Source: Polytrichum commune
Lineage: Eukaryota > Streptophyta > Polytrichopsida > Polytrichales > Polytrichaceae
Reading direction: 5' to 3'
Length of the DNA: 64,000 bases
NCBI GenBank assembly: GCA_950295325.1
Contig: OX485808.1
Coordinates: forward strand, 30,214,527 to 30,278,526
The position numbers were made by a program, and so were the translations under genes. The notes under the pieces are model-generated. The model made no database searches. It had not been told where the DNA came from and was given only the letters and a program-made list of their open reading frames with translations. Below, piece after piece: positions 1-47,604 of the stretch. Position 1 is the first letter of the stretch, and every line of letters starts with the position of its first letter.

Positions 1-137
1 AGTGGTTCTAAGTTTGCTTAGCTTGAGAACGTTTGTAGTTTTATTCTCTGCAAAGAATAAAATATAAAATTTGTGTCTTGCATATTGGTATATCACATAA
101 TTATGTTGATTGTGATGTTTTGTGTATGATTTTCCAG
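1..137 (+). other. Intron 3' end upstream of receptor copy 1
   Basis: A pyrimidine-containing stretch ends in a tttccag acceptor at 136-137. The same acceptor is present at 42701-42702 in copy 2. An ATG at 78 is in frame with the exon, but it lies in sequence that looks intronic, so the true start codon is probably in an upstream exon outside the window. Confidence 0.6.
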
Positions 138-1865
138 GAACATATGCAAATTATGACAAACATACAAGGCTTACTAGAGGAAGTTACAAACTTCCCTAAA
201 ATAGAGGAGAATCCAAAGGTTTTGAATAGTAAGCAATGCAAGAATTTGTTGGTGAATATTCAAAATGGTGTGGAAACAATTCAAAGCATGATCGATGGTT
301 CCTATAGCGCGGATGTGTTCCACCAAGTAGAGCAAAAGATGCTTGGTATTATGAAGAAAGCAAGGCATATGGTTGAAGAATGTTGCAAGGTTGGTGATTG
401 GTGTCGAGTGGTGGTAATGCAATTGAATAACAAAGAATCCTTCAGAGAACTTCTCTTGGATTTTGAGTATTGTTTCCACACAATGTGCGAAATATTTTGC
501 CAATCTTTTCCCAGTCGTGAAGTTGAAATCCGAGATATGGAAAAGTCTACAACATTCTACCCAACATCCATTGATGACGTTGAGCAAGACCAAAATGCAA
601 TATTTGAACGACTATCCATGGAGGTGAATTTGTGTAGAATTGACAATTGCAAAGATCATTGCATGCTTTTGCGATATTTAATGGAACGAATAACGGGGTT
701 GCAAAAGGTTGCGGGTGGTGAATTAGATAGCATTGTCTTTCCATATATTTATGAACCCCCTAACTATGGGAGGAGACCTAAGCCTTTGGGTAAGGGGGGT
801 TATGGGAGTGTATACTCAACCCAATGGTTAGGATTTGAAACTGCTACAAAGGTTATCAAAGTTGAGAACCCTGAGCATGAGACAATCGTTCGCAAAGAAG
901 CTAGTATTTTGGGCGGATTGAATCATCCCAACATCATCAAGTTTTTTTGGTGTGGCTTAGCAACAGATGGTGATGCACATGGAGGAGAAAGTCAAGGACT
1001 TGAAATCGTCATGGAACGAGGAATTATGAGCTTATCAAGTTTTTTGGAAGAAGGTGTGCTCACAGAAGCCGTGGTAATTGACATTATGATACAAATTGCA
1101 AGTGGAATGTGTTATCTTCATGACATGAAAGTGGCGCATCGTGATTTGAAGCCCGATAATGTTATATTGACTTCAAGGGGTGGCTCAACTTTGAAACATG
1201 TGCATGTGAAGATACTTGATTTTGGGATTTCAAAGATTGAAGTGAAAAACTCCCCACAAGTGCCTACAAATGGAGGTTGTTTTGGTACTTGCGGATATAT
1301 GGCACCTGAAGCTCATACACAACGAAGTTCAGAGGTGGATGCATTCAAAACGGATGTATTTAGTTTTGGCATGATGTGCTACGAGATTCTTTCGAACAAG
1401 AGAGCTTACACTGGAAAGATCTTACGCGACTATGTGAGGTTTTTGGAAAACAAGAGACCGGAGTTACCCAAAACTTGTTCTAAAGATTTGAAATCCTTGA
1501 TACATGAATGTTGGTCTTCGGAACCTTTGAATAGGCCCACATTCCTTGATATCTTTGAGAGGTTGAGAAAAGTCAAAAGTGATGCAATGCTCAAGGTTGC
1601 TAGTGATGTGAGAGTGGCTAGAATTTTGCACAAATCCACAACTCCTAGCAATTCTATTGAATATCCAAAGCGATGTTGGACAATGGTCAAACAAAAACTC
1701 CATGCATTCAATATATGGGCAATTCTTCTGTTGTGGCAAATGTTTATCACCTTTGCTCAATGGTTGCTATGTCACGTATCAAATTTCTTGGAGGCATTTT
1801 CCATTTCATCATCAAGTGCTCAAGAGAATTCAAACATCACAACATCAAATAAAATAGCTCATCAG
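138..1865 (+). CDS. Receptor copy 1, exon A: DUF1221-like domain plus protein kinase
   Basis: The exon encodes 576 residues, counted here from the codon after the acceptor at 137. Residues about 1-150 are helical, with a conserved CCKVGDW motif followed by an NKESF motif, resembling the DUF1221 domain of plant kinases. A complete kinase domain follows: glycine loop GKGGYGSV 218-225, probable VAIK lysine K238, HRDLKPDN 334-341, DFG 361-363, APE 389-391 and the late arginine R466. The HRD and DFG motifs predict an active Ser/Thr-type (TKL-like) kinase. Residues 526-551 are strongly hydrophobic, a possible membrane or amphipathic segment. The exon ends ...CAG|GTAAG at phase 0. The activation segment reads GTCGYMAPE where copy 2 has GTRGYMAPE, and a subdomain III-IV glycine is W here. 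The start is a splice acceptor, so upstream coding sequence is probably missing. Confidence 0.88.
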
Positions 1866-2022
1866 GTAAGCATTGAATGAGGTCAACCTTCATTGTCAAC
1901 TTTTAGTAGGGGTCTAAAGGTTGTGCATTGTGACTTTATTGGAAAAATTTGGAATTTAGTGGTATTTTTCTAGTGAGGATTGTTGGATGGCAATGAAATT
2001 TTTCATTTGGCATTTTATGCAG
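1866..2022 (+). other. Intron 1 of receptor copy 1 (157 bp)
   Basis: GTAAG donor and tatgcag acceptor, phase 0. Copy 2 has an intron of identical length (44344-44500). If the intron is retained, both copies read four extra residues (VSIE) and stop at TGA, giving a protein with the DUF1221-like domain, kinase and hydrophobic tail but no NB-ARC or LRR. Confidence 0.85.
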
Positions 2023-3075
2023 GTCACTAAGGAAACAAAGCGAATCTCCAAATTGATCGGACTCGAAGGAAAGAAATTGGAATTGGAGAAGAAACTTCAC
2101 GACCTTGGTAGTTTGGGGATTGTTGGCATGGGAGGAATTGGCAAATCAACTTTGGCAAATGCTCTAACCGACCATGTTTCCCACAAATTTGGTGCGACAT
2201 GCTTCGTGGGTGACTTTACAAGTGAAAGTTGTACCATTCAGGTGAAATACAAACTACAAGATGTGAAAGAGCCACCTCAAAGCAAAACATTGAAAGAAGG
2301 GCACATATTTTTGAAACAATTGCAAGAGACCAAAAAAATCCTTATTGTTTTGGACAATGTGGGCAACGCAAGGCAAGTGGAAGAACTATTAGGTGATCGC
2401 ACATGTCTTGATGTTCATGGTAGCAAACTTATTGCTACGTCCCGTAATTGGGAGTCTTTGAAACGACACATACCTATAGATGGTAAAGTAGATATGAAGA
2501 CCCTTGATAAAGAGCAATCTAAAGAATTGTTTTCTCTCCATGCATTTGCGACCAACCAACCATGTTTGCCATATTTGGAACATGTAGTTGAGAAGATTAT
2601 AAAGGCTTGTGATGGGCTTCCTTTGAGTTTGGAGGTGATGGGTAGTTATTTGCATGGAGAAAGGAGGTTGAGAATATGGGAGCGAACTTTACAAAGGTTG
2701 TTGAGGGCAAGACATGATGGAAGCATAGATGGAAAAATATGGGAAACATTGAGGATTAGCTTTGATGAACTCGGTGAGAAAGAACAAAGTATGTTTCTAG
2801 ACATAAGTTGTTTCTTTTCCAAGGACTCGTGGACTAGTGATTGGTTTTATACAAAAGCAACACTACTTAGAATGTTTGATGATGACATCAAGAGTACTCA
2901 TCACACATTGGAAAGTCTACAAGACAAATCGATGGTGAAATTTGACAAAAGGGACTTTTTGGTAATACATGATCAATTGCGGGATATGGGACGCATGATT
3001 GTTGAAAAAGAGTTTCAACAAAGTCGAGTTTGGAATTTATCTTTGACAACATTCCTCGAATATTGGAATGACAAG
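2023..3075 (+). CDS. Receptor copy 1, exon B: NB-ARC domain
   Basis: This exon encodes 351 residues (577-927 of the predicted product) and contains the whole NB-ARC nucleotide switch. Visible motifs are P-loop GMGGIGKST (611-619, lysine 617), kinase-2 LIVLDNV (683-689, aspartate 687), RNBS-B GSKLIATSRN, GLPL (774-777), RNBS-D-like MFLDISCFF and a VIHD motif (890-893) in place of MHD. These are the ATP/ADP-binding and autoinhibition elements of plant NLR receptors. No TIR, RPW8 or classical coiled-coil domain precedes it; a kinase takes that place, as in the PNL class described from Physcomitrella. The exon is flanked by phase-0 introns and ends ...AAG|GTATG at 3075. Copy 2 exon B is exactly the same length. 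Confidence 0.93.
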
Positions 3076-3179
3076 GTATGATACATAATGCAAATGAAAT
3101 TGTAGATTCTTTGCTACTTTGTTAGAATATGGTGATAATTATACCAGAGAATTAATTGCATGTGGTGTTGTACTTGCAG
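3076..3179 (+). other. Intron 2 of receptor copy 1 (104 bp)
   Basis: GTATG donor and cttgcag acceptor, phase 0, same length as intron 2 of copy 2 (45554-45657). Retention would stop translation within two codons. Confidence 0.88.
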
Positions 3180-4670
3180 GGCATAGAACTTGTGGAAGGC
3201 CTTTCATTTACTACGTTTGAAAGGAATAATTTGGCAATTCAAACAAATGTAGGTGTGAACACCATGAAAAACCTACGATTTTTGAGTATTAAGAATTGTG
3301 AACATATCGACATGCTTTTAGCTATCATTACCAAAACAAAGACATTGAAATGGTTGAGGATCCATTTCTCAACTCTATATGACAACATTTTACAGCAGCA
3401 TACATATTTTATGAAGGAATTCATGAAGGTTGGTGAAGATCATCTTCAACAATTGGGTGTACTTGAACTATTTGAAATCATAATTTGCACACCTGCTATA
3501 TTCCAAAATTTCCAACCTAAATTCTTGAAAGAAATATCTTTCATCAAGTGCACATTCCCACAAGGGGAATTTCCGATTGGCCTTGGAAACATAGAATTGG
3601 AAGAACTCAACATTTATGACTGTGAACAACTGAAAACACTACCCAAAGACTTTATCCATTTGACATCTCTACTCAAATTGGACATCTCCAAATGTACGAG
3701 CTTGGAGGAGTTCCCATCCGGAATATGCACTCTCAAGGCTTTGGAGGAATTAGATTTCAATGGATGCAGATCTTTGAGGAAAATACCGGAAGGGTTGGGG
3801 GGGTTGACTTGTTTGAAGAAATTGATGATGTGGGATTGCGAGGCCTTGGAGGTGTTCCCTTCCGGAATATGCACTCTCAAGGCTTTGGAGGAATTACATT
3901 TCAATGGATGCAAATCTTTGAGGAAAATACCGGAAGGGTTGGGGGGGTTGACTTGTTTGAAGAAATTGATGATGTCCGATTGCGAGGCCTTGGAGGAGTT
4001 CCCTTCTGGAATATGCACTCTCAAGGCTTTGGAGGAATTGTCATTAAGCGGTTGCAAATCTTTGAGGAAAATACCGGAAGGGTTGGGGGGGTTGACTTGT
4101 TTGAAGACATTGTACATGTGGGATTGCGAGGCCTTGGAGGAGTTGCCTTCCGGAATATGCACTCTCAAGGCTTTGGAGGAATTAGATTTCAATGGATCCA
4201 AATCTTTATGGAAAATACCGGAAGGGTTGGGGGGTTTGAGTTGTTTGAAGAAATTGATGATGTGGGATTGCGAGGCCTTGGAGGAATTCCCTTCCGGAAT
4301 ATGCACTCTCAAGGCTTTGGAGGAATTAGATTTCTCTAAATGCAAATCTATGAGGAAAATACCGGAAGGGTTGGGGGGGTTGACTTGTTTGAAGAAATTG
4401 ATGATGTGGGATTGCGAGGCCTTGGAGGAGTTCCCTTCCGGAATATGCACTCTCAAGGCTTTGGAGGAATTATCATTCAGAGGATGCAAATCTTTGAGGA
4501 AAATACCGGAAGGGTTGGGGGGCTTGACTTGTTTGAAGAAATTGATGATGTCATATTGCAAGGCCTTGAAGGTGTTCCCTTCCGGAATATGCACTCTCAG
4601 GGCTTTGGAGGAATTACATTTCAATGGATGCAGATCTTTGAGGAAAATACCGGAAGGGTTGGGGGGTTGA
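3180..4670 (+). CDS. Receptor copy 1, exon C: LRR domain, seven repeat units
   Basis: The exon continues at phase 0 for 496 codons. About 170 residues of irregular LRR sequence come first, then seven near-identical 48-residue units, each holding two 24-residue LRRs (EEFPSGICTLKALEEL, then RKIPEGLGGLTCLKKL). LRRs normally provide ligand recognition and autoinhibition in NLRs. The frame ends at TGA 4668-4670 because the seventh unit has six Gs (4661-4666) where the others have seven, so GGLTC becomes GG followed by a stop. The array physically continues to about 9262 in shifted frames, so this is either a truncated product, a consensus error in a homopolymer, or the start of pseudogenisation. 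Total predicted product with exons A and B is about 1423 residues. Confidence 0.82.
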   Translation, partial: GIELVEGLSFTTFERNNLAIQTNVGVNTMKNLRFLSIKNCEHIDMLLAIITKTKTLKWLRIHFSTLYDNILQQHTYFMKEFMKVGEDHLQQLGVLELFEIIICTPAIFQNFQPKFLKEISFIKCTFPQGEFPIGLGNIELEELNIYDCEQLKTLPKDFIHLTSLLKLDISKCTSLEEFPSGICTLKALEELDFNGCRSLRKIPEGLGGLTCLKKLMMWDCEALEVFPSGICTLKALEELHFNGCKSLRKIPEGLGGLTCLKKLMMSDCEALEEFPSGICTLKALEELSLSGCKSLRKIPEGLGGLTCLKTLYMWDCEALEELPSGICTLKALEELDFNGSKSLWKIPEGLGGLSCLKKLMMWDCEALEEFPSGICTLKALEELDFSKCKSMRKIPEGLGGLTCLKKLMMWDCEALEEFPSGICTLKALEELSFRGCKSLRKIPEGLGGLTCLKKLMMSYCKALKVFPSGICTLRALEELHFNGCRSLRKIPEGLGG

Positions 4671-5680
4671 CTTGTTTGAAGAAATTGATGATGTGGGATT
4701 GCGAGGCCTTGGAGGAGTTCCCTTCCGGAATATGCACTCTCAAGGCTTTGGAGGTATTAGCATTCAAAGGATGCACATCTTTGAGGAAAATACCGGAAGG
4801 GTTGGGGGGGTTGACTTGTTTGAAGAAATTGATGATGTGGGATTGCGAGGCCTTGGAGGAGTTCCCTTCCGGAATATGCACTCTCAAGGCTTTGGAGGAA
4901 TTGGATTTCTCTAAATGCAAATCTTTGAGGAAAATACCGGAAGGGTTGGGGGGTTGACTTTTTTGAAAATATTGCACATGTGGGATTGCGAGGCCTTGGA
5001 GGAGTTCCCTTCCGGAGTATGCACTATTAGGGCTTTGGAGGAATTACATTTCAATGGATGCAAATCTTTGAGGAAAATACCGGAAGGGTTGGGGGGGTTA
5101 AGTTGTTTGAAGCAATTGTGCATGAAGGATTGCGAGGCCTTGGAGGAGTTCCCTTCCGGAATATGCACTCTCAAGGCTTTGGAGGTATTAGCATTCAAAG
5201 GATGCACATCTTTGAGGAAAATACCGGAAGGGTTGGGGGGGTTGACTTGTTTGAAGAAATTGGACATGGCGGACTGCGAGGCCTTGGAGGAGTTCCCTTC
5301 CGGAATATGCACTCTCAAAGCTTTGGAGGAATTCTCTTTCTATGGATGCAAATCATTGACAAAAATACCAGAAGGGTTGGGGGGGTTGACTCGTTTGAAG
5401 GAATTGTACATGTGGGATTGCGAGGCCTTGGAGGAGTTCCCTTCCGGAATATCCACTCTCAAGGCTTTGGAGGAATTACATTTCAATGGATGCAAATCTT
5501 TGAGGAAAATGCCTGAAGGGTTGAGGGGGTTGACATGTTTGAAGAAATTGGACATGTCGGACTGCGAGGCCTTAGAGGAATTCCCTTCCGGAATATGCAC
5601 TCACAAAGCTATGGAGGAATTCGCTTTCTATGGATGCAAATCATTGAGGAAAATACCAGAAGGGATGGGGTGGTTGACAT
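3694..5680 (+). repeat. Tandem 144-bp LRR array, copy 1, left block
   Basis: About fourteen head-to-tail units of 144 bp, each encoding two LRRs. Units differ mainly at a few codons in the middle of the unit (DFNG, HFNG, SLSG, SFRG, DFSK). Most contain TT-G7-TTG. Because 144 is a multiple of three, the array is open over long stretches in two sense frames and on the antisense strand; these extra frames are by-products of periodicity. The block ends at the CACTA insertion. Confidence 0.92.
4671..5680 (+). pseudogene. Frameshifted continuation of the LRR array, copy 1
   Basis: LRR units continue without a gap after the stop at 4670. A second G6 tract at about 4948-4953 shifts the frame again, so units 4671-4957 and 4958-5680 lie in two different frames. 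The last unit is degraded (GMGWLTS) and is cut by the transposon at 5681. A reading frame from 4958 runs into the transposon and ends at 5772, giving about 30 transposon-derived residues. With both G6 tracts restored to G7 the LRR frame would be continuous from 3180 to the insertion. Confidence 0.82.
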
Positions 5681-7027
5681 CACTAGAGGAAAACAATGTT
5701 TTGTCCAGTGTTTTTCTACGTCATCTGAAACGTAAAACCCATAATATCCGGAATTATAATAGGTTGTTGTGACCTCACCGTTGGCTTGATCACGTGGGCT
5801 GTGTAGATTAAGAAGAATCCAACCTGAGCCTCCCGGGATGTACACACGTTTGCCTCCTTTACATGTCAACCACATCTCCATGAGGTGGATCCACTGATTT
5901 TCGTAGGCAATTGCACGCTACGGCATTGTTCATGTAGACTTTAGGCTCTGTTGTATTTAATTGACAGAACATTGTATCTGCATTATTTTAAATGAAATCT
6001 AGAATTTTTCATATTGTGCCACACCTCTTCGTGCGCACAATGAATTGCTCAATCTTACACCCATGCTCCGTTTAGTGATGTTCATATGCGTATTTATGAA
6101 TGTGATATGTACGTTTTTAATGACGTTATAACGTGTTTATTTGTGTGTTACAAAGCGTTTAATTGTGTGTTAGAAAGCGTTTGTTTGTGTTTCAAAGCAA
6201 TTAATTGTATGTTACAAAGCGTTTAATTGTGTGTAACAAAGCGGTTAATTATGTGTTAACAAGCGTTTAATTGTGTGTCACAACACGTTATAACGCGTTT
6301 AATTGTGTTTTAATTGACGTTTTGTTCGCGTTTTGTATGACCTTATCTCGTGTTACAGAACGTTATTATTTACGTTCAATAGTGTTGTATGTGTCATAAT
6401 GGTCATGAGCTATGCGTCTGGATGAACATTACATTGCGTTTCAGTGAACACACAAAATCCTCTTTGATGTTACAAAGAGTTGACGGTGCGAACGTCAACT
6501 TCCGTCTTAAAGCGTTTTCCAAAACGCATTCAAATATGTGACACATGCGTTTATCAGCGTCCAAACACGTTATAATGAACGTCCAGAACGCACTTCCAAA
6601 ACACGCTACACTGCGTTTACGTAAACATACAATACCCGACACCCTAAATGCGATCCGTAAATATTAGATTATTCCATGATCATGACATGTGTCACCATCT
6701 CAACCATCTAAATCCAACTGCCACGTCAACTGCCACGCAATATCCACGTAAGCTCCAACGTGGAATAAAAACAGCGGGAAATGCTCACGTGGCAAGTAAG
6801 TAACTTCCTCGATTTACTGACCCCATGTAATTTTTGGTTATCACAATTAACGTGAATTAACGGGAATAACGTGCGCGCGTTAAACCGTTTAACGTGCACA
6901 TGACGCGTCGCGTTAAAACCAAAAGACGTGACACAAGCGTCACTTTTCACTAGTCAAAAAACCCACGTTAAACCGCGTTAAAAACCGCATTAAACCGCGT
7001 CATTTTCGACGCGGCTTTCTTCTAGTG
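5681..7027. mobile_element. CACTA (En/Spm-like) non-autonomous transposon in the LRR exon
   Basis: The element is 1347 bp. It starts CACTAGAGGAAA and its other end, read in reverse complement, starts CACTAGAAGAAA. It is flanked by a perfect 3-bp target duplication (cat at 5678-5680 and 7028-7030), the hallmark of the CACTA superfamily. Subterminal regions are packed with short repeats: GCGTTTAATTGTGTG-type units at about 6130-6310 and CGCGTTAAA-type units at 6840-7010. No transposase-like frame is visible, so it would need enzyme supplied from elsewhere. Copy 2 has no insertion in its array. Confidence 0.9.
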
Positions 7028-9262
7028 CATGTTTGAAGAAATTGGAGTTGTCGGATTGCGAGGCCTTGGAGGAGTTCCCTTCCGGAATATGCATTCTCAA
7101 GGCTTTGGAGAAATTATCATTCAAAGGATGCAAATCTTTGAGGAAAATACCTGAAGGGTTGGGGGGGTTGACATCTTTGAAGAAATTGGACATGTCCCGT
7201 TGTGAGGCCTTGGAGGAGTTCCCTTCCCGAATATTCACTCTCAAGGCTTTGGAGGAATTACGTTTCAATAGATGCAAATCTTTCAAGAAAATACCGGAAG
7301 GGTTGGGGGGGTTGACATGTTTGAAGAAATTGTACATGTAGGATTGCGAGGCCTTGGAGGAGTTCCCTTCCGGAATATTCACTCTCAAGGCTTTGGAAGA
7401 ATTATATTTCAATGGATCCAAATCTTTGAGTAAAAAACCAGAAGGGTTGAGGGGGTTGACATGTTTGAAGAAATTGGACATGTCGGACTGCGAGGCCTTG
7501 GAGGAGTTCCCTTCCGGAATATTCACTCTCAAGGCTTTGGAGGAATTATGCTTCAATAGATGCAAATCTTTGAGGAAAATACCGGAAGGGTTGGGGGGGT
7601 TGACATGTTTGAAGAAATTGTACATGTGGGATTGCGAGGCCTTGGAGGAGTTCCCTTCCGGAATATTCACTCTCAAGGCTTTGGAAGAATTATATTTCAA
7701 ATACCAGAAGGGTTGGGGGGGTTGACATGTTTGAAGAAATTGGATATGTCGGAATGCGAGGCCTTGGAGGAGTTCCCTTCCGGAATATGCACTCTCAAGG
7801 CTTTGGAGAAATTATCATTCAAAGGATGGAAAACACAGGAAAATACATGAAGAGTTGGGGGGGTTGACGAGGGGTTGACTTGTAAGAAGACATTGATGAT
7901 GTGGGATTGCGAGGCCTTGGAGGAGTTCCCTTCCGGAATATGCACTCTCAAGGCTTTGGAGGAATTATCATTCAGAGGATGGAAATCTTCATAGAAAATA
8001 CCGGAAGGGTTGGGGGGTTGACTTGTTTGAAGAAATTGATGATGTGGGATTGCGAGGCCTTGGAGGAGTTCCCTTCCGGAATATGCACTCTCAAAGCTTT
8101 GGAGGAATTCTCTTTCTATGAATGCAAATCATTGAGGAAAATACCAGAAGGGTTGGGGGGGTTGACATGTTTGAAGAAATTCGACATGTCGGACTGCGAG
8201 GCCTTGGAGGAGTTCCCTTCCGGAATATGCACTGAAAGCTTTGGAGGAATTCTCTTTCTATGGATGCAAATCATTGAGGAAAATACGAGAAGGGTTGGGA
8301 GGGTTGACTCGTTTGAAGAAATTGGACATGTCGGACTGCGAGGCCTTGGATTAGTTCCCTTCCGGAATATGCACTCTCAAGGCTTTGGAGGAATTACATT
8401 TCAATGGATACAAATCTTTGAGGAAAATACCAGAAGGGTTGGGGGGTTGACATGTTTGAAGAAATTGGACATGTCGGACTGCGAGGCCTTGGAGGAGTTC
8501 CCTTCCAGACTATGCACTCTCAAAGCTTTGGAGGAATTCTCTTTCTATGGATGCAAATCATTGAGGAAAATACCAGAAGGGTTGGGGGGGTTGACTTGTT
8601 TGAAGAAATTGTACATGTGGGATTGCGAGGCCTTGGAGGAGTTCCCTTCCGGAATATGCACTCTCAAGGCATTGAAGGAATTAGATTTCGATGGATGCAA
8701 ATCTTTGAGGAAAATACCGGAAGGGTTGGGGGGGTGGACTTGTTTGAAGAAATTGTCCATGTCGTGTTGCCAAGCCTTGGAGGAGTTCCCTTCCGGAATA
8801 TGCAGTCTCACAGCTTTGGAGGAATTACATTTCAATGGATGCAAATCTTTGAGGAAAATACCGGAAGGGTTGGGGGGTTGACTTGTTTGAAGACATTGAT
8901 GATGTGGGATTGCGAGGCCTTGGAGGAGTTCCTTTCCAGAATATGCACTCTCAAGGCTTTGGAGGAATTGCATTTCCATGGTTGTAAATCTTTGAGGGAA
9001 TTACCAGAAGGGTTGGCGGGGTTGATTTGTTTGAGGAAATTGTACATGTGGGATTGGAAGGCCTTGGAGGAATTCCCTTCCGGAATATGCACTCTCAAAG
9101 CTTTGGAGGAATTATCATTCAAAGGATGCAAATCTTTGAGGGAAATACCGAAAGGGTTGGGGGGTTCGGTTGTTTGAAGCAATTGGGCATGAGGGATTGT
9201 GAGGTCTTGAAGGAGTTGACTTCTGGAGTATGCACTGTTAAGGCTTTGGAGGTATAAGTTTT
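7028..9262 (+). pseudogene. LRR array right of the transposon, decayed
   Basis: About fifteen further 144-bp LRR units resume in register after the transposon. The frame is broken many times: a TAG at 7339-7341 (W to stop), a deletion in the unit at about 7700, a scrambled unit at 7830-7900, a loss of five bases near 8232, and G6 tracts at about 8014, 8441, 8871 and 9160. Terminal units are more divergent (LPEGLAGLICLRKL). Even with the transposon removed this part could not be read as one frame, so it is a relic of a once longer LRR domain. Confidence 0.85.
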
Positions 9263-10006
9263 CAAAGGGTACAAATCTTTGAGATAGGTGATTGCATACA
9301 TTGGTGATTGCGAGGCTTTGGAAGAGTTCCTTTCCGGAATATGTACTCTAAGGCTTTAAAGGATCATCATTCAATGAACGCAACTCTTTGAGGAAAGTAA
9401 CAGAAGTGTTGGGGGGTTTGACTTGTTTGAGTAAATTGAGATAGTGAGGCGTTGGAGGAGTTTCGTATTGAGCTATGGACTTACGGAGTTTGGAGGCGTT
9501 ATCATTGTACTGTAGGATATCTTTGAGGTATGTACGGGATGGATTTGAAGGTTTTTGGTGTTTGAAGGAATTGTCCATGGCTTGATATAAACTGACTTTA
9601 TTTGTTCAATGATTTGTTTGTAAGATATGTTGCACAATTTGTGACTTTTCAACTTGGCATACAATTTTGACCAATGGATCTTATTGGGCATTGTGCCATT
9701 CCTGTTGTATGTTGTGTATCATGCAGTTTGTTATTTCAAGTTCAAATTGGGAGTTTTGATGTCAAAGTTAAAGTTGGTCAAAGCAAGGATTTTATTTTCC
9801 TTTAGATAGTGCCAATTGAGGATGTAGGGCAGGATGTTGGAAAACATGCCTCCATGAACTGTGAGGATGAATGGGGTTGTTCAAGACACAACAATGGCTG
9901 AAGTGAATTTTATTTGGTTTTGCATGTGGACATTCCTATATGAGAGTTTATGTTTTGCATCCTATTAAATTTTTGATGTTGAAATCCCCGTTTAAATTAA
10001 GGTTGA
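9263..10006 (+). other. Decayed LRR tail and 3' flank of receptor copy 1
   Basis: 9263-9560 holds degenerate LRR fragments with stops in all frames. About 9560-9960 is almost identical to 48258-48660 in copy 2 although non-coding, which suits a 3' untranslated or downstream region. Homology with copy 2 breaks at 10006. Confidence 0.6.
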
Positions 10007-23828: not shown

Positions 23829-24275
23829 GGTTATTTACCTCCAAGGGGCCAAGGGCTTAATTAAAGCCTCCCTATAATTACTTAAATTTCAAAAAAGGCC
23901 CATTTGTTTGCACCCTTCCATTACTTATTTTATGTACTCTATATTCCTTTTAAGTAATAAACGGGCGTGGGGAAGACGACCCCAACAACGGCGTGTTCCC
24001 TTTTCATTCATTTTTGGACAGACGGAAATCCCAATTATCATCCATCCCCGTGAGTCCTATCTTCAACCCCTATATTAATTTTACAAAAAAATAATGGCCC
24101 ACGTTTTAGGTCCATCTAACTTACTTATAATGGGATTGTCTACATTTAATGGCCCCTTCATTATTTGGAATTCCTTTATAATTTTTATTTCAAATGATTT
24201 TAATCCTCTCTATATTATGCCGCACATCGTTTTTAAAATGCACTAAGTGATCTACCCGTGATATGGGTGTTGTTT
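23748..24275. mobile_element. Candidate inverted-repeat element with T29 tract
   Basis: GGGTCACGGGTAGATCACT at about 23753 is repeated in inverted orientation at about 24248-24272 (AGTGATCTACCCGTGATAT). The 530-bp interval holds a T29 run at 23800-23828 and nothing coding. No clear target duplication was seen, so it may be a MITE or a chance foldback. Confidence 0.4.
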
Positions 24276-24640
24276 TTTGTAGGACGTTTGTAGTTCATGT
24301 GGGGTTTGTAAATTTGATGGGAGGTGTATGCATATTATTGTTAGCAATGGTTCTACTCATAAAAAGTAATGACATAAACAATACTTCATACCAAATTTGG
24401 AAATTTGAAATTAATTCTCTATTGGAAAATTTGTTGGCATGAACCACCCAACCACAAGACAAGATTAAAGACCTTTACTCTTGCTCAAGAGCCCTTTACA
24501 TAACTCCCCACCATGCCCGGTTGTCTTAATTTTAATCAAAGTAAAAGCATGTTCATTATTAGCAAATATAATGAACTGTGTTTTTACTTTAAACTCATTC
24601 TAGACTACCATTATCTTAGTTCTAGTCAACATGTACCAAT
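24276..24640. other. Unassigned AT-rich spacer
   Basis: I see no gene, repeat or motif here. The base composition changes to A/C-rich on the plus strand at about 24640. Confidence 0.4.
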
Positions 24641-27600
24641 AATCGCCCGTATTACATATATAAATAAAAACATTCCATGACAACAAAATCATATACAACA
24701 ACTCTAACAACACACAAACACAAACATAGCTGATACTCCGAACCCACCTCAGCTAGCATACTAGCAATGATACCCAAATTTATACACACAAATGAAAACC
24801 TTACCGAAGTCCCAACCCCCAACTCAATATTGCCATAGCTCCAAGCAATTGTAATCAACAACAAACCCATAACATCCATACTCATTTTAAATATGTACAT
24901 GCCAACACAACTCCAAGATACACACCTCATACAAGAAATCCAAAGTCATATCGAAACATTGGTAAATCAACACCCAAAACACCAAACTATCCTAACATGT
25001 GATTTAATCGGGACATACTACTAAAGGGTAGATCATCCAACGGCATACCATCTCCCCAAACTTAAACAACAAGCCTGCACAAGATCACCCATCGCCATAA
25101 GACTCTTCCTACTTTCGAGTATACAAAATACACACCACCACTACAAACCGCGCATTCCCCATCAAAAAGACCCCACTAGAGCAAGCATGGAGATCCAATT
25201 CGACATACGCCAACTTCACAAATAATGCAAAGACAAAATTCCAGCCATAACTTGATAAATTATACACATACGGTATCACAATGCTACCACAAATCCAAAA
25301 CAAATAGACTATAGCCATACTAGCCCCGGAGTAATTCCGAACCACATACAAACACGCACCCAAAATCATAAAAGATGCATTACAACAAGCCCATTCACTA
25401 TTCCCTCCCCTGCCAACACTCAAACCCAATCGGAACCACCCACAAACAACACAACGCACACTTGCAACCATCGCACATGACATAAAGACCCCACCACAAC
25501 CTATACTAGGGCAAACAATCCACACCATAATTAATGAAAAAACCACCACCAAAGAAGATAAGTGGGGGGCAAGCCATCAAAAAAAACGTACCTATGCCAA
25601 TGGCAAACCCCAAGAGGAGCCACATAACAATGGAGCATAGAGGACGACCTCCTGCAGCCAGACAACATACTACTAGACCATAATTTACTACTTATAACAC
25701 AATACCATATGAAGGCTCTAAAACAAAAAACCACCCAAACCTACACTACATACCTCAACCATACCCAAACAAAGGTCAACAAATTCATACATCCCCCACT
25801 AAAAATCACCAACCTCAAGTTATCCACACAAGAGTGCAACCCGGACAAGGACATCCTCACAAATAAACCAACCCTACAAATACAAGACGCAAAGTCCCAC
25901 ATATACAACCAAGGCAAAAACTACATGGCCACCATCACTACAAAAAAACTCCATTAACTATGGAACCGATACTCCCATATTAACCTCCCGCACCTAACCA
26001 ACTTCCTAAAACCCCAACCACAAGCCTTTGAAACCGAAATCCTATGGCTTATACAAAGATACATAACTATATTCCCCAAGGAAAAACCAAAAAATATACA
26101 ACCCAACAACAACCACCATACGCTACATCTGGAAATCACCAAACTGCTAATAGATCCCTTTAAAAGCACGCGTTCATACTACTCCTCCCCACTTACTTGC
26201 CCCATCCAACTCACACAATACAATTCACCCCACCACCATGACATAATATTCGGCTTCTTGGGCCACGTAAAATCCTCCAGATGGGAAGGAATAGGCCTAG
26301 CGTATCCCACATACCACAACGCATCCCTAAAAGCCATCCACTGGGCTAGAATGGCAGCCAAAGAAGACGCCCACACAATCACCATCCTAATAATCAACCG
26401 CAACGACTAGACATCACAAAAACTCCCAATCACCACACACGTAGACATACATATAATAGCAACCACCCCACCCCACGCTATACATTATGACCCCACACCA
26501 TAATGGACAAAATACTACAAACGCATAGAACCATCCTTGACATCAATAATATATGCATACATAACCAAGTAAACCTCACAACAAACTTACAAACCCCACA
26601 CGAACTACAACAAGTCCTAAAGACCACAATTAACATACACGTAGACAAATACCCCATTAAACCAAACCCCTCACACACCCATGTTAAATTCTCCGAAGCA
26701 TGGAAAGATGCCACCAAAACAAACGCCCCCATCCCAATAAACACCTACTAGCCAAATACAACCACATCCGTCCCCTTAAATACCACCCACAACATTGCAT
26801 TTACACATATGACACATTTATCCCACCCACCATAAACTTTGAAGACCAAATAGAGGGCAATACAACCATATCAAGAATCTATAACCCCAACAACAACACA
26901 CAAATAACAGAGTGATTCCCAAGCTACCAAAACATCTTGCAAGCATGACTTCACACAATACTCATTGCTATCAAAACCTTACAAACCACTCAACTAAACA
27001 TACACATATTTACAAACAACCTAAATATCATATTCTTAATCAACAATCACATACAACACCCGACATCCCAACATCATCACCCCAAAAAACTATTAATAGC
27101 AACAATTGTACACAAAATATACTAGACCCCACACACAATTCACATCCATAACGTACGCGCACACTCGGGCATTACTGGAAATGAAATAGCTGACACACTA
27201 GCCAACAAAGGAATACTTAAAGAAAAATTGACCACCACCCCACACATACACACGGCTCCCTACTAGCTAGTAAGTTGCCCAACAACTACACATGACGGAG
27301 CCATTCGCAACCTTTGCACATTCATAGCAAAAGAACACGGAAACTGTGAAACTAAAACAACCAAAACCAAATTCCCATACATGGACAAATGGTTATCCGA
27401 CACTCAAATAAACCAAAAACTCTCCAACCACTTTTGGAAAAATGAAAACGTAACAGATGCCCAAATCACCCAAAAGTTCAAATTCGGATACGCACAATAC
27501 GTGGGTAGCCACATGATGAATATCTTCTGGCCCCCTTACACATCAAAACCCAATTGCACATTGTGTCAACACAATGACAAAGACACCTGGCCCCACCTTC

Positions 27601-42386: not shown

Positions 42387-42702
42387 TGAGGTTCTAGTTT
42401 TGCTTAGCTTGAGGACGCTTGTAGTTTTATTCTCGTCAAAGAATGAAAATAATATTCCTTTTGGTCTTGCTTATTGGAATATTAAATATTTTATTGATTT
42501 GTGATGTTTTGTGTATAATTTAGTAGAAATATATGCAAAGTATGTTTTGATGGAAAACGGACAAAGAGCGATTCCTTTATGAAAATGACAAATATACAAG
42601 GCTTACTGGAGGAAGTTACAAACTTCCCTAAGGTTTTGTGTTTTGCATATCGGTATATGACATAATTATGTTGATTGTGATGTTTTGTGTATGATTTTCC
42701 AG
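42387..42702 (+). other. Upstream intron of receptor copy 2 with a partial exon duplication
   Basis: 42500-42635 is a decayed tandem duplicate of the splice acceptor and first about 60 bp of the kinase exon (compare 42677-42760), carrying an unrelated filler of about 43 bp and a changed acceptor region. The functional acceptor is tttccag at 42696-42702. Copy 1 lacks this duplication. Confidence 0.6.
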
Positions 42703-44343
42703 GAACATATGCAAATTATGACAAACATACAAGGCTTACTAGAGGAAGTTACAAACTTCCGTAAAATAGAGGAGAATCCAAAGGTTTTGAATAGTAGGCA
42801 ATGCAAGAATTTGTTGGTGAATATTCAAAATGGTTTGAAAACAATTCAAAGGATGATCGATGGTTCCTATGGCGCAGATGTGTTCCACCAAGTAGAGCAA
42901 GAGATGCTTGGTATTATGAAGAAAACAAGGCATATGGTTGAAGAATGTTGCAAGGTCGGTGATTGGTGTCGAGTGGTGGTCATGCAATTGAATAACAAAG
43001 AATCCTTCAGAGAACTTCTCTTGGACTTTGAGTATTGTTTCCACACAATGTGCGAAATATTTTGCCAATCTTTTCCTAGTCGTGAAGTTGAAATCCGAGA
43101 TATGGAAAAGTCTGCAACATTCTACCCGACAACCATTGATGAAGTTGAGCAAGACCAAAATGCAATATTTGAAAGACTTTCCAAGGAAGTTGATTTGTGC
43201 ACAACTGACAATTGCCACGATCATTGCATGCTTTTGCGATATTTGATGGAACGAATAAGGGGGTTGCAAAAGGCCACGGGTGGTGAATTAGATAGCATCA
43301 TCTTTCCAGATAACTTTGAACCCCCTGACTATGGGAGGGCACCTAAGCTTTTGGGTAAGGGGGGGTTTGGGAGTGTGTACTCAACCCAATGGTTTGGATT
43401 TGAAACTGCTACAAAGATTTTCAAAGTTGAGAACCTTGAGCATGAAACAATTGTTCGCAAGGAGGCTAGTATTTTGGGCGGATTGGATCATCCCAACATC
43501 ATCAAGTTTTTTGGTTGTGGCTTATCAACGGAATGTGACGCACGTGCAAGAGAAAGTAAAAGATTTGAAATCGTCATGGAACAAGGAATTTTGAGCTTAT
43601 CAAGGTTTTTGGAAGGAGATATGTTGACAGAAGCCATGGGAGTTGACATTTTGATACAAATTGCAAGTGGAATGTGTTATCTTCATGACATGAAAGTGGC
43701 GCATCGTGATTTGAAGCCCGATAATGTGATATTGACTTCAACGGGTGGCTCAACATTGGAACATGTGCATGTGAAGATACTTGATTTTGGGATTTCCAAG
43801 ATTGAAGTGAAAAACTCGCCACAAGTGCCTACAAATGAAGGTTGTTTTGGTACTCGCGGATATATGGCACCTGAAGCTCATAAAAAACGAACATCAGAGG
43901 TGGATGCATTCAAAACGGATGTATTTAGTTTTGGCATGATGTGCTACGAGATTCTTTCGAACAAGAGACCGGAGTTACCCAAAACTTGGTCTAAAGATTT
44001 GAAATCATTGATACATGAATGTCGGTCTTTGGAGCCTTTGAATAGGCCCACATTCCTTGATATCTTTGAGAGGTTGAGAAAAGTCAAAAGTGATGCAATG
44101 CTCAAGGTTGCTAGTGATGTGAGAGTGGCTAAAATTTTGCACGAATCCACAACTCCTAGCAGTTCTATGGAATATCCAAAGCGATGTTGGACAATGGTGA
44201 AACATAAATTCCATGCATTCAATATATGGGCAATTCTTCTTTTGTGGCAAATGTTTATCACCTTTGCTCAATGGTTGTCACGTTACATATCAAATTTTTT
44301 AAAGGCAATTTCCATTTCGTCATCAAATAAAATAGATGACGAG
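42703..44343 (+). CDS. Receptor copy 2, exon A: DUF1221-like domain plus shortened kinase
   Basis: 547 residues, collinear with copy 1 exon A. The DUF1221-like N-terminus (CCKVGDW), glycine loop GKGGFGSV, K238, HRDLKPDN 334-341, DFG 361-363 and GTRGYMAPE are intact. Two in-frame losses relative to copy 1 stand out. Eighteen residues just after EILSNKR, in the kinase C-lobe around helix alpha-G, are gone between 9-bp direct repeats. Eleven residues are lost from the linker before the intron. Loss of the alpha-G region would be expected to disturb substrate docking, so this may be a weakened or dead kinase, although the catalytic residues remain. A hydrophobic segment (WAILLLWQMFITFAQWL) follows the kinase. 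Ends ...GAG|GTAAG, phase 0. Confidence 0.87.
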
Positions 44344-44500
44344 GTAAGCATTGAATGAGGTCTACCTTCATTGTCAACTTTTAGTAGGGGTCTAAAGATT
44401 GTGCATTGTGACTTTATTGGTAAAATTTGGAATTTAGTGGTATTTTTCTAGTGAGGTTTGTTAGATGGCAATGAAAGTTTTCATTTGGCATTTTATGTAG
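44344..44500 (+). other. Intron 1 of receptor copy 2 (157 bp)
   Basis: GTAAG donor, tatgtag acceptor, phase 0. The acceptor reads tgtag, where copy 1 has tgcag. Retention again yields VSIE then TGA. Confidence 0.85.
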
Positions 44501-45553
44501 GTCACTAAGGAAACAAAGCGAATCTCCAAATTGATCGGACTCGAAGGAAAGATATTGGAATTGGAGAAGCAACTTCACGACCTTGGTAGTTTGGGGATTG
44601 TTGGCATGGGAGGAATTGGCAAATCAACTTTGGCAAATGCTGTAAGCGACCATGTTTCCCACAAATATGGTGCGACATGCTTCGTGGGTGACTTTACATG
44701 TGAAAGTTGTACCATTCACGTGAAATACAAACTACAAGATGTGAAAGAGCCACCTCAAAGCAAAACATTGAAAGAAGGGCACACATTTTTGAAACAATTG
44801 CAAGAGACCAAAAAAATCCTTATTGTTTTGGACAATGTGGGCAACGCAAGGCAACTGGAAGAACTATTGGGTGATTGCACATGTCTTGATGTTCATGGTA
44901 GCCAACTTATTGCTACTTCCCGTAATTGGGAGTCTTTGAAACGACACATACCCATAGTTGGTAAAGTAGATATGGAGACCCTTGATAAAGAGCAATCTAA
45001 AGAATTATTTTCTCTCCATGCATTTGCGACCAACCAACCATGTTTGCCATATTTGGAACATGTAGTTGAGAAGATTGTAAAGGCTTGTGATGGGCTTCCT
45101 TTAAGTTTGGAGGTGATGGGTAGTTATTTGCATGGAGAAAGAAGGTTGAGAATATGGGAGCGAACTTTACAAAGGTTGTTGAGGGCAAGACACGATGGAA
45201 GCATAGATGGGAAAATATGGGAAACATTGAGGATTAGCTTTGATGAACTCGGTGAGAAAGAAAAAAGTATGTTTTTAGACATAAGTTGTTTCTTTTCCAA
45301 GGGCTCCTCAATTGGTGACTGGGTGTTTACAAAAGCAACACTAGTTCGAATGTTTCATGATGACATCAAGAATACCCATCACACATTGGAAAGTCTACAA
45401 GGCAAATCGATGGTGAAATTTGACAAGAACGACAATTTGGATATACATGATCAATTGCAGGATATGGGACGCATGATTGTTGAAAAAGAATTACAACAAA
45501 CTCGAGTTTGGAATTTATCTTTGACAACATTCCTCGAATATTGGAATGACAAG
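44501..45553 (+). CDS. Receptor copy 2, exon B: NB-ARC domain
   Basis: 351 residues with P-loop GMGGIGKST, kinase-2 LIVLDNV, GSQLIATSRN, GLPL, MFLDISCFF and an IHD motif. The exon is the same length as copy 1 with only scattered substitutions, densest after the RNBS-D region (SSIGDWVFTKATLVRMF against TSDWFYTKATLLRMF). No disruption is visible. The uninterrupted frame after an ancient-looking duplication suggests constraint, at least until recently. Confidence 0.93.
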
Positions 45554-45657
45554 GTATGATACATAATGCAAATGAAATTGTAGATTCTTTGCTACTTTGT
45601 TAGAATATTGTATTAATTATACTAGAGAATTAATTGCATGTGGTGTTGTACTTGCAG

Positions 45658-47604
45658 GGCATAGAACTTGTGGAAGGCCTTTCATTCACTACGTTTGAAA
45701 GGAATAATTCGGCAATTCAAACAAATGTAGGTGTGAACACTATGAAAAACCTACGATTTTTGAGTATTAAGAATTGTGAACACATCGACATGCTTTTAGC
45801 TATCATTACCAAAACAGTGACATTGAAATGGTTGAGGATCCATTTCTCAACTCTAAATGACAACATTTTACAGCAGCATACATATTTTATGAAGGAATTC
45901 ATGAAGGTTGGTGAAGATCATCTTCAACAATTGGGTGTACTTGAACTATTTGAAATCATAATTTGCACACCTGCTATATTCCAAAATTTCCAACCTAAAT
46001 TCTTGAAAGAAATATCTTTCATCAAGTGCACGTTCCCACAAGGGGAATTTCCAATTGGCCTTGGAAAGATAGAATTGGAAGAACTCAACATTTCTGACTG
46101 TGAACAACTGAAAACACTACCCAAAGACTTTATCCATTTGACATCTATACTCAAATTGGACATCTCAAAATGTACGAGCTTGGAGGAGTTCCCTTCCGGA
46201 ATATGCACTCTCAAGACTTTGGAGAAATTATCATTCAGAGGATGCAAATCTTTGAGGAGAATACCGGAAGGGTTGGGGGGGTTGACTTCTTTGAAGAAAT
46301 TGATAATGTGGGATTGCGAGGCCTTGGAGGAGTTCCCTTCCGGAATATGCACACTCAAGGCTTTGGAGGAATTACATTTCAATGGATGCAAATCATTGAG
46401 GAAAATACCAGAAGGGTTGGGGGGGTTGATTTGTTTGAAGAAATTGTACATGTGGGATTGCGAGGCCTTGGAGGAGTTCCCTTCCGGAATATGCACTCTC
46501 AAGGCTTTGGAGGAATTACATTTCAATGGATGCAAATCTTTACGGAAAATACCGGAAGGGTTGGGGGGGTTGAGTTGTTTGAAGAAATTGATGATGTGGG
46601 ATTGCGAGGCCTTGGAGGAGTTCCCTTCCGGAATATGCACTCTCAAGGCTTTGGAGGAATTATCATTTAGAGGATGCAAATCTTTGAGGAAAATACCGGA
46701 AGGGTTGGGGGGGTTGACTTGTTTGAAGAAATTGATGATGTGGGATTGCGAGGCCTTGGAGGAGTTCCCTTCCGGAATATGCACTCTCAAGGCTTTGGAG
46801 GAATTCTATTTCTATAACTGCAAATCATTGAGGAAAATACCGGAAGGGTTGGGGGGGTTGACTTGTTTGAAGAAATTGTACATGTGGAATTGCGAGGCCT
46901 TGGAGGAGTTCCCTTCCGGAATATGCACTCTCAAGGCTTTGGAGGAATTACATCTCAATGGATGCAAATCTTTGAGGAAAATACCGGAAGGGTTGGGGGG
47001 GTTGACTTGTTTGAAGAAATTGATGATGTGGGATTGCGAGGCCTTGGAGGAGTTCCCTTCCGGAATATGCACTCTCAAGACTTTGGAGGAATTATATTTC
47101 AATGGTTGCAAATCTTTGATGAAAATACCGGAAGGGTTGGGGGGGTTGACTTGTTTGAAGAAATTGTACATGTGGAATTGCGAGGCCTTGGAGGAGTTCC
47201 CTTCCGGAATATGCACTCTCAAGGCTTTGGAGGAATTACATCTCAATGGATGCAAATCTTTGAGGAAAATACCGGAAGGGTTGGGGGGGTTGACTTGTTT
47301 GAAGAAATTGATGATGTGGGATTGCGAGGCCTTGGAGGAGTTCCCTTCCGGAATATGCACTCTCAAGGCTTTGGAGGAATTATCATTCCAAGGATGCAAA
47401 TCTTTACGGGAAATACCGGAAGGGTTGGGGGGGTTGACTTGTTTGAAGGAATTATATATGTCGGATTGCGAGGCCTTGGAGGAGTTCCCGTCCACAATAT
47501 GCACTCTCAAAGCTTTGGAGGAATTATCATTCAGAGGATGCAAAATCTTTGAGGGAAATACCAGAAGGGTTGGGGGGTTAAGTTGTTTGAAGCAATTGGC
47601 ATGA
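45658..47604 (+). CDS. Receptor copy 2, exon C: LRR domain, ten repeat units
   Basis: 648 codons after intron 2 (45554-45657). The irregular N-terminal LRR part matches copy 1, then ten 48-residue units follow. Nine consecutive G7 tracts are intact. In the tenth unit an extra A (GCAAAATCT near 47540) shifts the frame, a G6 tract at 47570-47575 shifts it back, and loss of a G in TTGGCATGA produces the stop at 47602-47604. Copy 1 has TTGGGCATG at the same place, so the ancestral frame ran further. The complete predicted product (exons A-C) is about 1546 residues, with the longest LRR domain in the window. Confidence 0.87.
   Translation, partial: GIELVEGLSFTTFERNNSAIQTNVGVNTMKNLRFLSIKNCEHIDMLLAIITKTVTLKWLRIHFSTLNDNILQQHTYFMKEFMKVGEDHLQQLGVLELFEIIICTPAIFQNFQPKFLKEISFIKCTFPQGEFPIGLGKIELEELNISDCEQLKTLPKDFIHLTSILKLDISKCTSLEEFPSGICTLKTLEKLSFRGCKSLRRIPEGLGGLTSLKKLIMWDCEALEEFPSGICTLKALEELHFNGCKSLRKIPEGLGGLICLKKLYMWDCEALEEFPSGICTLKALEELHFNGCKSLRKIPEGLGGLSCLKKLMMWDCEALEEFPSGICTLKALEELSFRGCKSLRKIPEGLGGLTCLKKLMMWDCEALEEFPSGICTLKALEEFYFYNCKSLRKIPEGLGGLTCLKKLYMWNCEALEEFPSGICTLKALEELHLNGCKSLRKIPEGLGGLTCLKKLMMWDCEALEEFPSGICTLKTLEELYFNGCKSLMKIPEGLGGLTCLKKLYMWNCEALEEFPSGICTLKALEELHLNGCKSLRKIPEGLGGLTCLKKLMMWDCEALEEFPSGICTLKALEELSFQGCKSLREIPEGLGGLTCLKELYMSDCEALEEFPSTICTLKALEELSFRGCKIFEGNTRRVGGLSCLKQLA
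46176..47590 (+). repeat. Tandem 144-bp LRR array, copy 2
   Basis: Ten units. Units 6-7 and 8-9 form a higher-order duplicate: segments from about 46878 and 47166 match almost perfectly at a 288-bp spacing (both read YMWNC, then HLNG, then MMWDC). This is the footprint expected of a two-unit unequal exchange. Confidence 0.9.

What the first reader, a model, noticed from the sequence alone, without database searches (positions are those of the whole stretch)
138..4670. Kinase at the N-terminus of an NLR: DUF1221-like, kinase, hydrophobic segment, NB-ARC, LRR
The sequence joins a complete kinase and a full NB-ARC by phase-0 introns exactly at domain borders, in both copies. Kinase-NB-ARC-LRR (PNL) receptors are known from Physcomitrella, but the DUF1221-like N-terminus and a strongly hydrophobic stretch (526-551) between kinase and NB-ARC are worth attention. 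They suggest a receptor that carries its own signalling enzyme and perhaps a membrane contact or helical-bundle executor.
Basis: partly seen in the sequence, partly recalled or inferred. Interest (0 to 1): 0.8.

Follow-up and report, generated by a model that had tools for sequence, protein, structure and literature searches.

The report
Immune receptor with MLKL-like front end
In this moss-type plant genome, a large family of immune receptors carries at its front end a helical-domain-plus-kinase unit related to the plant relatives of the animal cell-death protein MLKL, so that sensor and likely executioner may sit in one protein.

Summary
Window 153-4670 encodes N-domain, kinase, hydrophobic segment, NB-ARC and LRR in three exons joined by phase-0 introns; a second copy lies at 42718-47604. 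ATG 153 is the better start. Of 76 exon-A places listed genome-wide, 72 have the NB-ARC exon close downstream. Four of four relatives read carry all parts in one uninterrupted frame, so the fusion needs no splicing there. The class is known: moss kinase-NBS-LRR (PNL). The new point is the front end. Its N-domain profile matches kinases that pass Pfam's DUF1221 cut-off; a combined profile finds plant MLKL 6LBA at 1.3e-10; divergent PNL L036 matches 6LBA at 2.3e-41 against 2.7e-21 for the next kinase family; the kinases group with MLKL. Against: no direct DUF1221 hit for the window protein, failed fold models (pLDDT 32 and 45), window kinase alone no closer to MLKL than to MLKs. The window kinase keeps its catalytic residues; three of four apparently stand-alone relatives do not. 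No held paper that I saw (passages and listings) calls moss PNLs MLKL-type. Mechanism is inferred.

The parts
153..563 (+). N-terminal domain (residues 1-137), DUF1221/HeLo-like helical domain
   Evidence: PNL-only profile hits DUF1221 proteins L033/L034; combined profile hits MLKL structure 6LBA; no direct Pfam DUF1221 hit
564..782 (+). linker and brace-like helix (residues 138-210), with YLxxRxxGLQxxxGGELD
   Evidence: collinear with 6LBA through the GL..xxG motif
783..1577 (+). Ser/Thr-type protein kinase domain, catalytic residues present (GKGGYG, K233, E249, HRDLKPDN, DFG)
   Evidence: Pfam 147 bits; motif survey; trees
1713..1769 (+). hydrophobic, Trp-rich segment IWAILLLWQMFITFAQWLL
   Evidence: hydropathy and conservation
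1866..2022 (+). phase-0 intron 1 (GTAAG...TGCAG)
2023..3075 (+). exon B: NB-ARC with GMGGIGKS P-loop, winged helix and IHD (MHD-like) motif
3076..3179 (+). phase-0 intron 2
3180..4670 (+). exon C: LRR, 144-bp (48-aa) tandem modules, first stop 4668-4670
4671..5772 (+). LRR homology out of frame with exon C, second break near 4957
42718..44343 (+). copy 2 exon A, 18-residue kinase deletion
44501..45553 (+). copy 2 exon B (NB-ARC)
45658..47604 (+). copy 2 exon C (LRR)

Best explanation
The gene is a member of the moss kinase-NBS-LRR (PNL) class whose front end is an MLKL-type unit: HeLo/DUF1221-like helical domain, brace, kinase. Most likely the LRR or NB-ARC senses a pathogen cue, the NB-ARC oligomerises, the clustered kinases phosphorylate each other or partners, and this frees the helical domain to act on a membrane, helped by the hydrophobic segment where present. 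Shown: gene structure, domain order, covalent fusion in relatives, homology to plant MLKL through intermediates, intact catalytic residues in the window kinase. Inferred: helical-bundle fold, oligomerisation, kinase activity, membrane action, cell death.
For: A profile from 34 PNL N-domains hits 7 of 7 fetched DUF1221-type N-domains L033-L039 (17.8-120.6 bits; 7 of the 15 places were fetched); the best of 2,100 shuffles scores 12.9. L033 and L034 pass the Pfam DUF1221 cut-off (29.6 and 25.5 bits against 25). Combined profile: 6LBA 1.3e-10, 6KA4 1.8e-5; 6LBA is named an MLKL protein in PMC10881975 (passage). Divergent PNL L036: 6LBA 2.3e-41, 6KA4 6.4e-36, next 2.7e-21. PNL-only profile against the 6LBA/6KA4 pair: 168 collinear columns, score 28.9; 100 column shuffles reach at most 20.6. 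PNL, stand-alone and MLKL kinases are separated from the outgroups with support 99.3/100 and 100/95. All parts in single frames in 4 of 4 read; 26 of 90 places lie in stop-free frames of at least 1,200 aa. Catalytic Lys, alphaC-Glu and DFG in 34 of 34 PNLs, HRD in 33 of 34. The hydrophobic segment recurs in 29 of 34 PNLs and in L057 and L058. Published: a P. patens Pkn-NLR N-terminal part, made up to the NB-ARC start, gave a modest, variable HR; mild ion leakage was seen for all tested kinases except one Tsn1 mutant (PMC11218826, passages).
Against: The window protein has no DUF1221 hit at E<=1; among 26 PNL N-domains one has a DUF1221 hit (E 0.088) and four have MLKL_N hits (best 0.0033), weak and beside unrelated families with similar scores. 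The PNL-only profile finds no solved structure at E<=1; hhalign gives 20% probability. The combined profile also hits an apparently unrelated protease-domain protein at 1.4e-5. For the window kinase alone MAP3K9/MLK score slightly better than MLKL. 11 of 34 PNLs depart from GxGxxG in the glycine loop, and L036/L037 have HLD and DYG, so some PNL kinases may be inactive. AlphaFold models failed (pLDDT 31.8 and 44.8). Six of ten kinases fetched as outsiders (L044, L045, L047-L050) fell inside the MLKL clade. The hydrophobic segment is missing in 5 of 34 PNLs and in L035-L037, L055 and L056.
Confidence: 0.6

Rival explanations
1. The kinase is the output: the active receptor phosphorylates downstream proteins, and the N-terminal helical domain only regulates or scaffolds the kinase, as a brace or dimerisation part.
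For: Catalytic residues are kept in PNLs but partly lost in the apparently stand-alone relatives L033, L034 and L038 (L039 keeps them). Exon A is free of stops in all but 2 of 77 rows; dN/dS of the kinase is below 1 in 14 of 15 pairs.
Against: The helical domain is constrained too (dN/dS below 1 in 15 of 15 pairs) and belongs to a family described as cell-death inducing (PMC10951266 and PMC9950082, passages). 11 of 34 PNLs have a degenerate glycine loop.
Confidence: 0.25
2. The hydrophobic segment is a membrane anchor that makes many PNLs membrane-tethered receptors; the rest is an ordinary kinase-NLR.
For: Strong hydrophobicity in the window gene (octanol scale -17.2 kcal/mol, Kyte-Doolittle 1.75 for the best 19 residues) and recurrence at the same place in 29 of 34 PNLs and in L057 and L058 at about -15.
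Against: Missing in L017-L020, L022, L035-L037, L055 and L056. Trp-rich and only about 20 residues; it may pack as an amphipathic linker.
Confidence: 0.2
3. The kinase unit is an integrated decoy that baits pathogen effectors, and execution is done by helper receptors.
For: Kinases are among the integrated domains known to be effector targets, and mosses are reported rich in NLRs with integrated domains (PMC8559963 and PMC11218826, passages).
Against: In every PNL that I read the unit sits at the N-terminus, in the signalling position, and the unit is spread over 133 places (union; not all were checked for NB-ARC).
Confidence: 0.12
4. The two window copies themselves are decaying genes (truncated LRR, kinase deletion in copy 2) of a living family.
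For: Frame breaks in the LRR of both copies and an 18-residue kinase deletion in copy 2.
Against: About 2.8 kb of exons A and B are open with splice sites kept; stops lie at different places in W1, W2, L051 and L052, while L053 and L054 are open to the end of the piece; some breaks may be homopolymer errors.
Confidence: 0.35

Closest known systems
PNL / Pkn-NLR class of mosses (PMC3352924, PMC3991678, PMC11218826; passages seen)
   Same: Kinase, NBS and LRR; phase-0 introns between PK and NBS and between NBS and LRR; large moss family
   Different: The passages that I saw name only a kinase at the N-terminus; here a HeLo/DUF1221-like domain, a brace-like region and an often present hydrophobic segment are recognised. 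I could not test whether P. patens members have them.
Plant MLKL (Arabidopsis; structures 6LBA and 6KA4; original paper not held, known here from PMC9950082 and PMC10951266 passages; that 6KA4 is an MLKL is recalled)
   Same: Helical N-domain, brace, kinase-like domain in the same order; profile and tree relation
   Different: Fused to NB-ARC-LRR; window kinase has HRD and DFG, where 6LBA has HGD and GFG in the alignments
RPW8-type helper NLRs (ADR1, NRG1)
   Same: HeLo-like bundle at the N-terminus of an NLR (PMC9950082, passage); weak RPW8 hits in L035 (20.3 bits) and L037 (17.0 bits), both below the cut-off of 30.4
   Different: A kinase lies between N-domain and NB-ARC here
Wheat Tsn1 kinase-NLR
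   Same: Kinase at the N-terminus of an NLR
   Different: Monocot kinase-NLRs are placed inside the CC/RPW8 clade (PMC11218826, passage); relation to this unit not tested
Fungal HeLo and MLKL-like NLRs (PMC9815663, listing only; PMC10952240, passage)
   Same: HeLo-type domain on an NLR
   Different: Other kingdom; no test of homology made here

Membership tests
PNL (moss kinase-NBS-LRR) | N-terminal protein kinase domain | tested here: met
   Pfam 147 bits
PNL (moss kinase-NBS-LRR) | NB-ARC followed by LRR | tested here: met
   89 bits and several LRR models
PNL (moss kinase-NBS-LRR) | Phase-0 introns between PK and NBS and between NBS and LRR | tested here: met
   definition from PMC3352924 passages
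PNL (moss kinase-NBS-LRR) | Transcribed as one mRNA | not testable with these tools
   No transcripts; single-frame relatives are indirect support
Plant MLKL (DUF1221-kinase) | Pfam DUF1221 match of the protein itself | tested here: not met
   No hit at E<=1 for the window protein
Plant MLKL (DUF1221-kinase) | Homology of the N-domain family to DUF1221 proteins | tested here: met
Plant MLKL (DUF1221-kinase) | Kinase domain of the MLKL clade | tested here: met
   nine outgroup kinases, poor resolution inside the clade, window kinase alone no closer to MLKL than to MLKs by BLAST score
Plant MLKL (DUF1221-kinase) | Four-helix-bundle fold | tested here: inconclusive
   AlphaFold pLDDT 31.8 and 44.8
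Plant MLKL (DUF1221-kinase) | Pseudokinase (loss of catalytic residues; a trait of Arabidopsis MLKLs, recalled, seen in the 6LBA alignment) | tested here: not met
   Catalytic residues present in the window kinase
Plant MLKL (DUF1221-kinase) | Cell-death activity of the N-domain | not testable with these tools
   Needs expression
RPW8-type NLR (RNL) | RPW8/CC-R domain directly before NB-ARC | tested here: not met
   A kinase lies between; no RPW8 hit for the window protein

The most novel reading that the evidence does not exclude
The whole moss PNL class is an 'MLKL-NLR' class: an entire MLKL-type cell-death module, in many members with a catalytically complete kinase and a membrane-seeking segment, fused to NB-ARC-LRR, so that sensing, oligomerisation, phosphorylation switch and membrane execution are in one polypeptide, a necrosome and resistosome in one; plant MLKLs and PNLs descend from one ancestral HeLo-kinase.
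Probability: 0.45. Interest if true: 0.85.

Novelty: new variant of a known kind. Interest (0 to 1): 0.64.

Why it matters
The output of moss kinase-NLRs is unknown; one review expects phosphorylation of target proteins and asks for evidence (PMC10952240, passage), and another describes plant MLKLs as a family of seed plants (PMC9950082, passage). If the front end is an MLKL-type module, a direct test becomes available (does it permeabilise membranes, and does its own kinase license it?), and the MLKL module reaches back to the bryophytes as part of an NLR.

Tried and rejected
Window-only AlphaFold models of exon A and of residues 1-190 (two sequences each) were too poor, so no fold search was made. 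A coding exon just upstream of 138 was looked for by eye in about 1.2 kb of upstream sequence and in copy 2; none stood out, and copy 2 has a small partial repeat of the exon-A start; a 21-base piece of that repeat was found in none of the 58 loci. That the pairing of exons A and B is chance was rejected. That N-domain similarity is composition only was rejected by shuffles. Antisense ORFs in the LRR array I take to be by-products of the 144-bp repeat. An inverted-repeat search of window 1-10000 (40 bases or more) found none. The hydropathy script stopped with an error after L033; W1, W2, L034-L039 and L055-L058 were done. The tree controls were the 10 best PF07714 matches of the genome; six grouped with the MLKL clade, so four (L041-L043, L046) served as outgroups beside CTR1, MAP3K9, MLK4, SRC and EGFR. 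Rows dropped before counts: 8 of 116 exon-B rows; only 14 of the 126 NB-ARC rows (those in long frames) were used, so '12 of 26' is a lower bound; two rows that cover one place were merged.
Full report
What is there. The window lies in a 408-Mb plant genome (G000:C6:30214527-30278526). I take the plant to be a moss because it is rich in PNL genes; no call named it. The gene at 153-4670 has three exons. Exon A (153-1865, 571 codons from the Met at 153) holds an N-domain, a brace-like linker, a protein kinase and a hydrophobic, Trp-rich segment. Exon B (2023-3075) holds the NB-ARC and winged helix. Exon C (3180-4670) holds 48-residue LRR modules. Both introns are phase 0, as Xue et al. describe for PNL genes (PMC3352924, passages). 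The second copy (42718-47604) has the same joins.

Is it more than chance? Exon A matches 76 listed places in the genome (76 of 805 candidates scored, so a lower bound), and only 2 of 77 rows hold a stop. In 72 of 76 the NB-ARC exon begins 125-1125 bp beyond the matched stretch on the same strand; about 0.0005 per place would be expected within 4 kb (108 of 116 exon-B rows used). Two of the four others (L016, L020) have a broken exon B. The best evidence for the fusion is a related subfamily. The 475-residue N-unit of L055 matches 90 listed places (90 of 755 candidates scored), 81 of them free of stops, and 26 lie in stop-free frames of at least 1,200 aa, up to 3,674. At least 12 of these 26 have an NB-ARC match within 1 kb (14 of 126 rows used; itself scored 126 of 466 candidates). 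Four of four such frames that I read (L055-L058; 1503, 1583, 2930 and 2140 aa) contain N-domain, kinase, NB-ARC and LRR in one frame. No splicing is needed there.

What the N-domain is. Pfam finds no DUF1221 in the window protein. Among 26 PNL N-domains one has a DUF1221 hit (E 0.088), four have MLKL_N hits (best 0.0033) and two RPW8 hits (best 0.015); unrelated families score as well. The genome scan with DUF1221 found 15 matches at E<=1, one above the cut-off; three of the weak ones lie just upstream of NB-ARC matches. I fetched seven of the 15. A profile made only from 34 PNL N-domains scores 120.6 and 117.1 bits on the divergent PNLs L037 and L036, 55.5 on L035, 36.3 and 35.8 on the kinases L033 and L034, and 20.2 and 17.8 on L038 and L039; 2,100 shuffles reach at most 12.9. 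L033 and L034 pass Pfam's DUF1221 cut-off. No exon-B match was found in the fetched pieces of L033, L034, L038 and L039, so these look like stand-alone kinases. A profile of 20 N-domains of both kinds finds 6LBA at 1.3e-10 and 6KA4 at 1.8e-5, but also an apparently unrelated protease-domain protein at 1.4e-5. The PNL-only profile finds nothing at E<=1. Compared directly with the 6LBA/6KA4 pair it aligns 168 collinear columns with score 28.9 (hhalign probability 20%, E 0.0012); 100 column-shuffled pairs reach at most 20.6. 6LBA is named an MLKL protein in PMC10881975 (passage); that 6KA4 is another Arabidopsis MLKL is recalled.

What the kinase is. For the divergent PNL L036 the best solved structures are 6LBA (2.3e-41) and 6KA4 (6.4e-36); the next, Src, has 2.7e-21. 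For the window kinase alone, MAP3K9/MLK are slightly ahead of MLKL. In trees of 24 and 34 kinases the PNL, stand-alone and MLKL kinases are separated from the outgroups with support 99.3/100 and 100/95. Six of ten kinases that I had fetched as controls also fell inside that clade; they may be further MLKL-type kinases, but only L044, L047 and L048 give N-domain scores, and weak ones (9-14 bits with the combined profile). The order of branches inside the clade is poorly supported. Lys, alphaC-Glu and DFG are present in 34 of 34 PNLs and HRD in 33 of 34; L036 and L037 have HLD and DYG; L033, L034 and L038 have lost some of these residues, L039 has HLD with DFG. The glycine loop fits GxGxxG in 23 of 34 PNLs, the window gene and copy 2 among them; the 11 others are L016 and L023-L032. 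So the window kinase looks complete, while some relatives may be weak or inactive.

The hydrophobic segment. Residues 521-539 score -17.2 kcal/mol on the octanol scale. A segment of this kind lies between kinase and NB-ARC in 29 of 34 PNLs (W1, W2 and 27 of L001-L032; weak in L030) and is missing in L017-L020 and L022. The single-frame relatives L057 and L058 have one at the same place (about -15), so there it cannot be an artefact of exon borders; L055, L056 and L035-L037 have none. It is a recurrent but optional module; membrane insertion is untested.

Selection. In 15 pairs dN/dS of the N-domain is 0.25-0.83, and of the kinase 0.31-1.07; short segments are too noisy.

Defects. The LRR frame of the window gene stops at 4668-4670 after a G6 run; homology goes on to 5772 with a second break. 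W2, L051 and L052 stop elsewhere; L053 and L054 stay open to the end of the fetched piece. Copy 2 lacks 18 kinase residues. These particular copies may be truncated or affected by homopolymer errors.

Structure. Two AlphaFold jobs, limited to the two window copies, gave pLDDT 31.8 and 44.8. The second shows helices at 4-12, 26-47, 53-77, 82-92, 97-117, 140-163 and 166-186, but such models prove nothing, and I made no fold search.

Literature. Moss kinase-NLRs are well known (PMC3352924, PMC3991678, PMC11218826, PMC10952240; passages). In Chia et al. the N-terminal part of a P. patens Pkn-NLR, made up to the NB-ARC start, gave a modest, variable cell-death response, and mild ion leakage was seen for all tested kinases except one Tsn1 mutant. 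I looked for an earlier statement that moss kinase-NLRs carry an MLKL-type unit: searches for DUF1221 (3 papers), MLKL with bryophyte and HeLo (1 paper), and combinations of HeLo, NLR, moss, kinase, MLKL, kinase-NLR, NB-ARC, Physcomitrium, Sphagnum and Ceratodon, of which only the top of the longer lists was shown; passages of two moss-defence reviews and of the third DUF1221 paper. I saw none. I read passages and listings only; Mahdi et al. 2020, the plant MLKL paper, is not held, nor are most subscription papers.

Conclusion. The finding is real. The class is known; the recognition that its front end is an MLKL-type HeLo-brace-kinase unit appears to be new within what I could search. The mechanism (NB-ARC clustering, kinase switch, release of the helical domain onto a membrane) follows from the parts and from what is known of MLKL and of HeLo-type plant NLRs; it is not shown.

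Noticed in passing
L055-L058; one search list: A PNL subfamily with N-domain, kinase, NB-ARC and LRR in one uninterrupted frame (4 of 4 read); 26 of 90 places have stop-free frames of at least 1,200 aa, up to 3,674 aa.
   Followed up: partly
L057 about residues 504-522, L058 about 514-532 of the open frame: Trp-rich hydrophobic segment between kinase and NB-ARC inside a single reading frame, like the one of the window gene but in a distant subfamily.
   Followed up: partly
L033, L034, L038, L039: DUF1221-type kinases without an NB-ARC exon match in the fetched pieces; L033, L034 and L038 look like pseudokinases, L039 less so.
   Followed up: partly
L044, L045, L047-L050: Six kinases picked as tree controls fell into the MLKL clade; possibly a further expansion of MLKL-type kinases.
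   Followed up: partly
window 42570-42640: Partial repeat of the exon-A start just upstream of copy 2, ending in a possible donor site.
   Followed up: partly
window 7028-9283: Second, broken array of the same 144-bp LRR module downstream of the gene, without an exon A or B in the ORF list.
   Followed up: no
window 24001-28000: Stretch with strong strand asymmetry (GC skew about -0.4, AT skew 0.24 to 0.33).
   Followed up: no
G000:C6 28.8-33.1 Mb: Cluster of 18 of the 76 exon-A places, among them a copy 435 kb away whose exon A is 99.7% identical in protein to that of the window gene.
   Followed up: no
window 50274-50828, minus strand: ORF with repeated AECLKAAE-like units.
   Followed up: no
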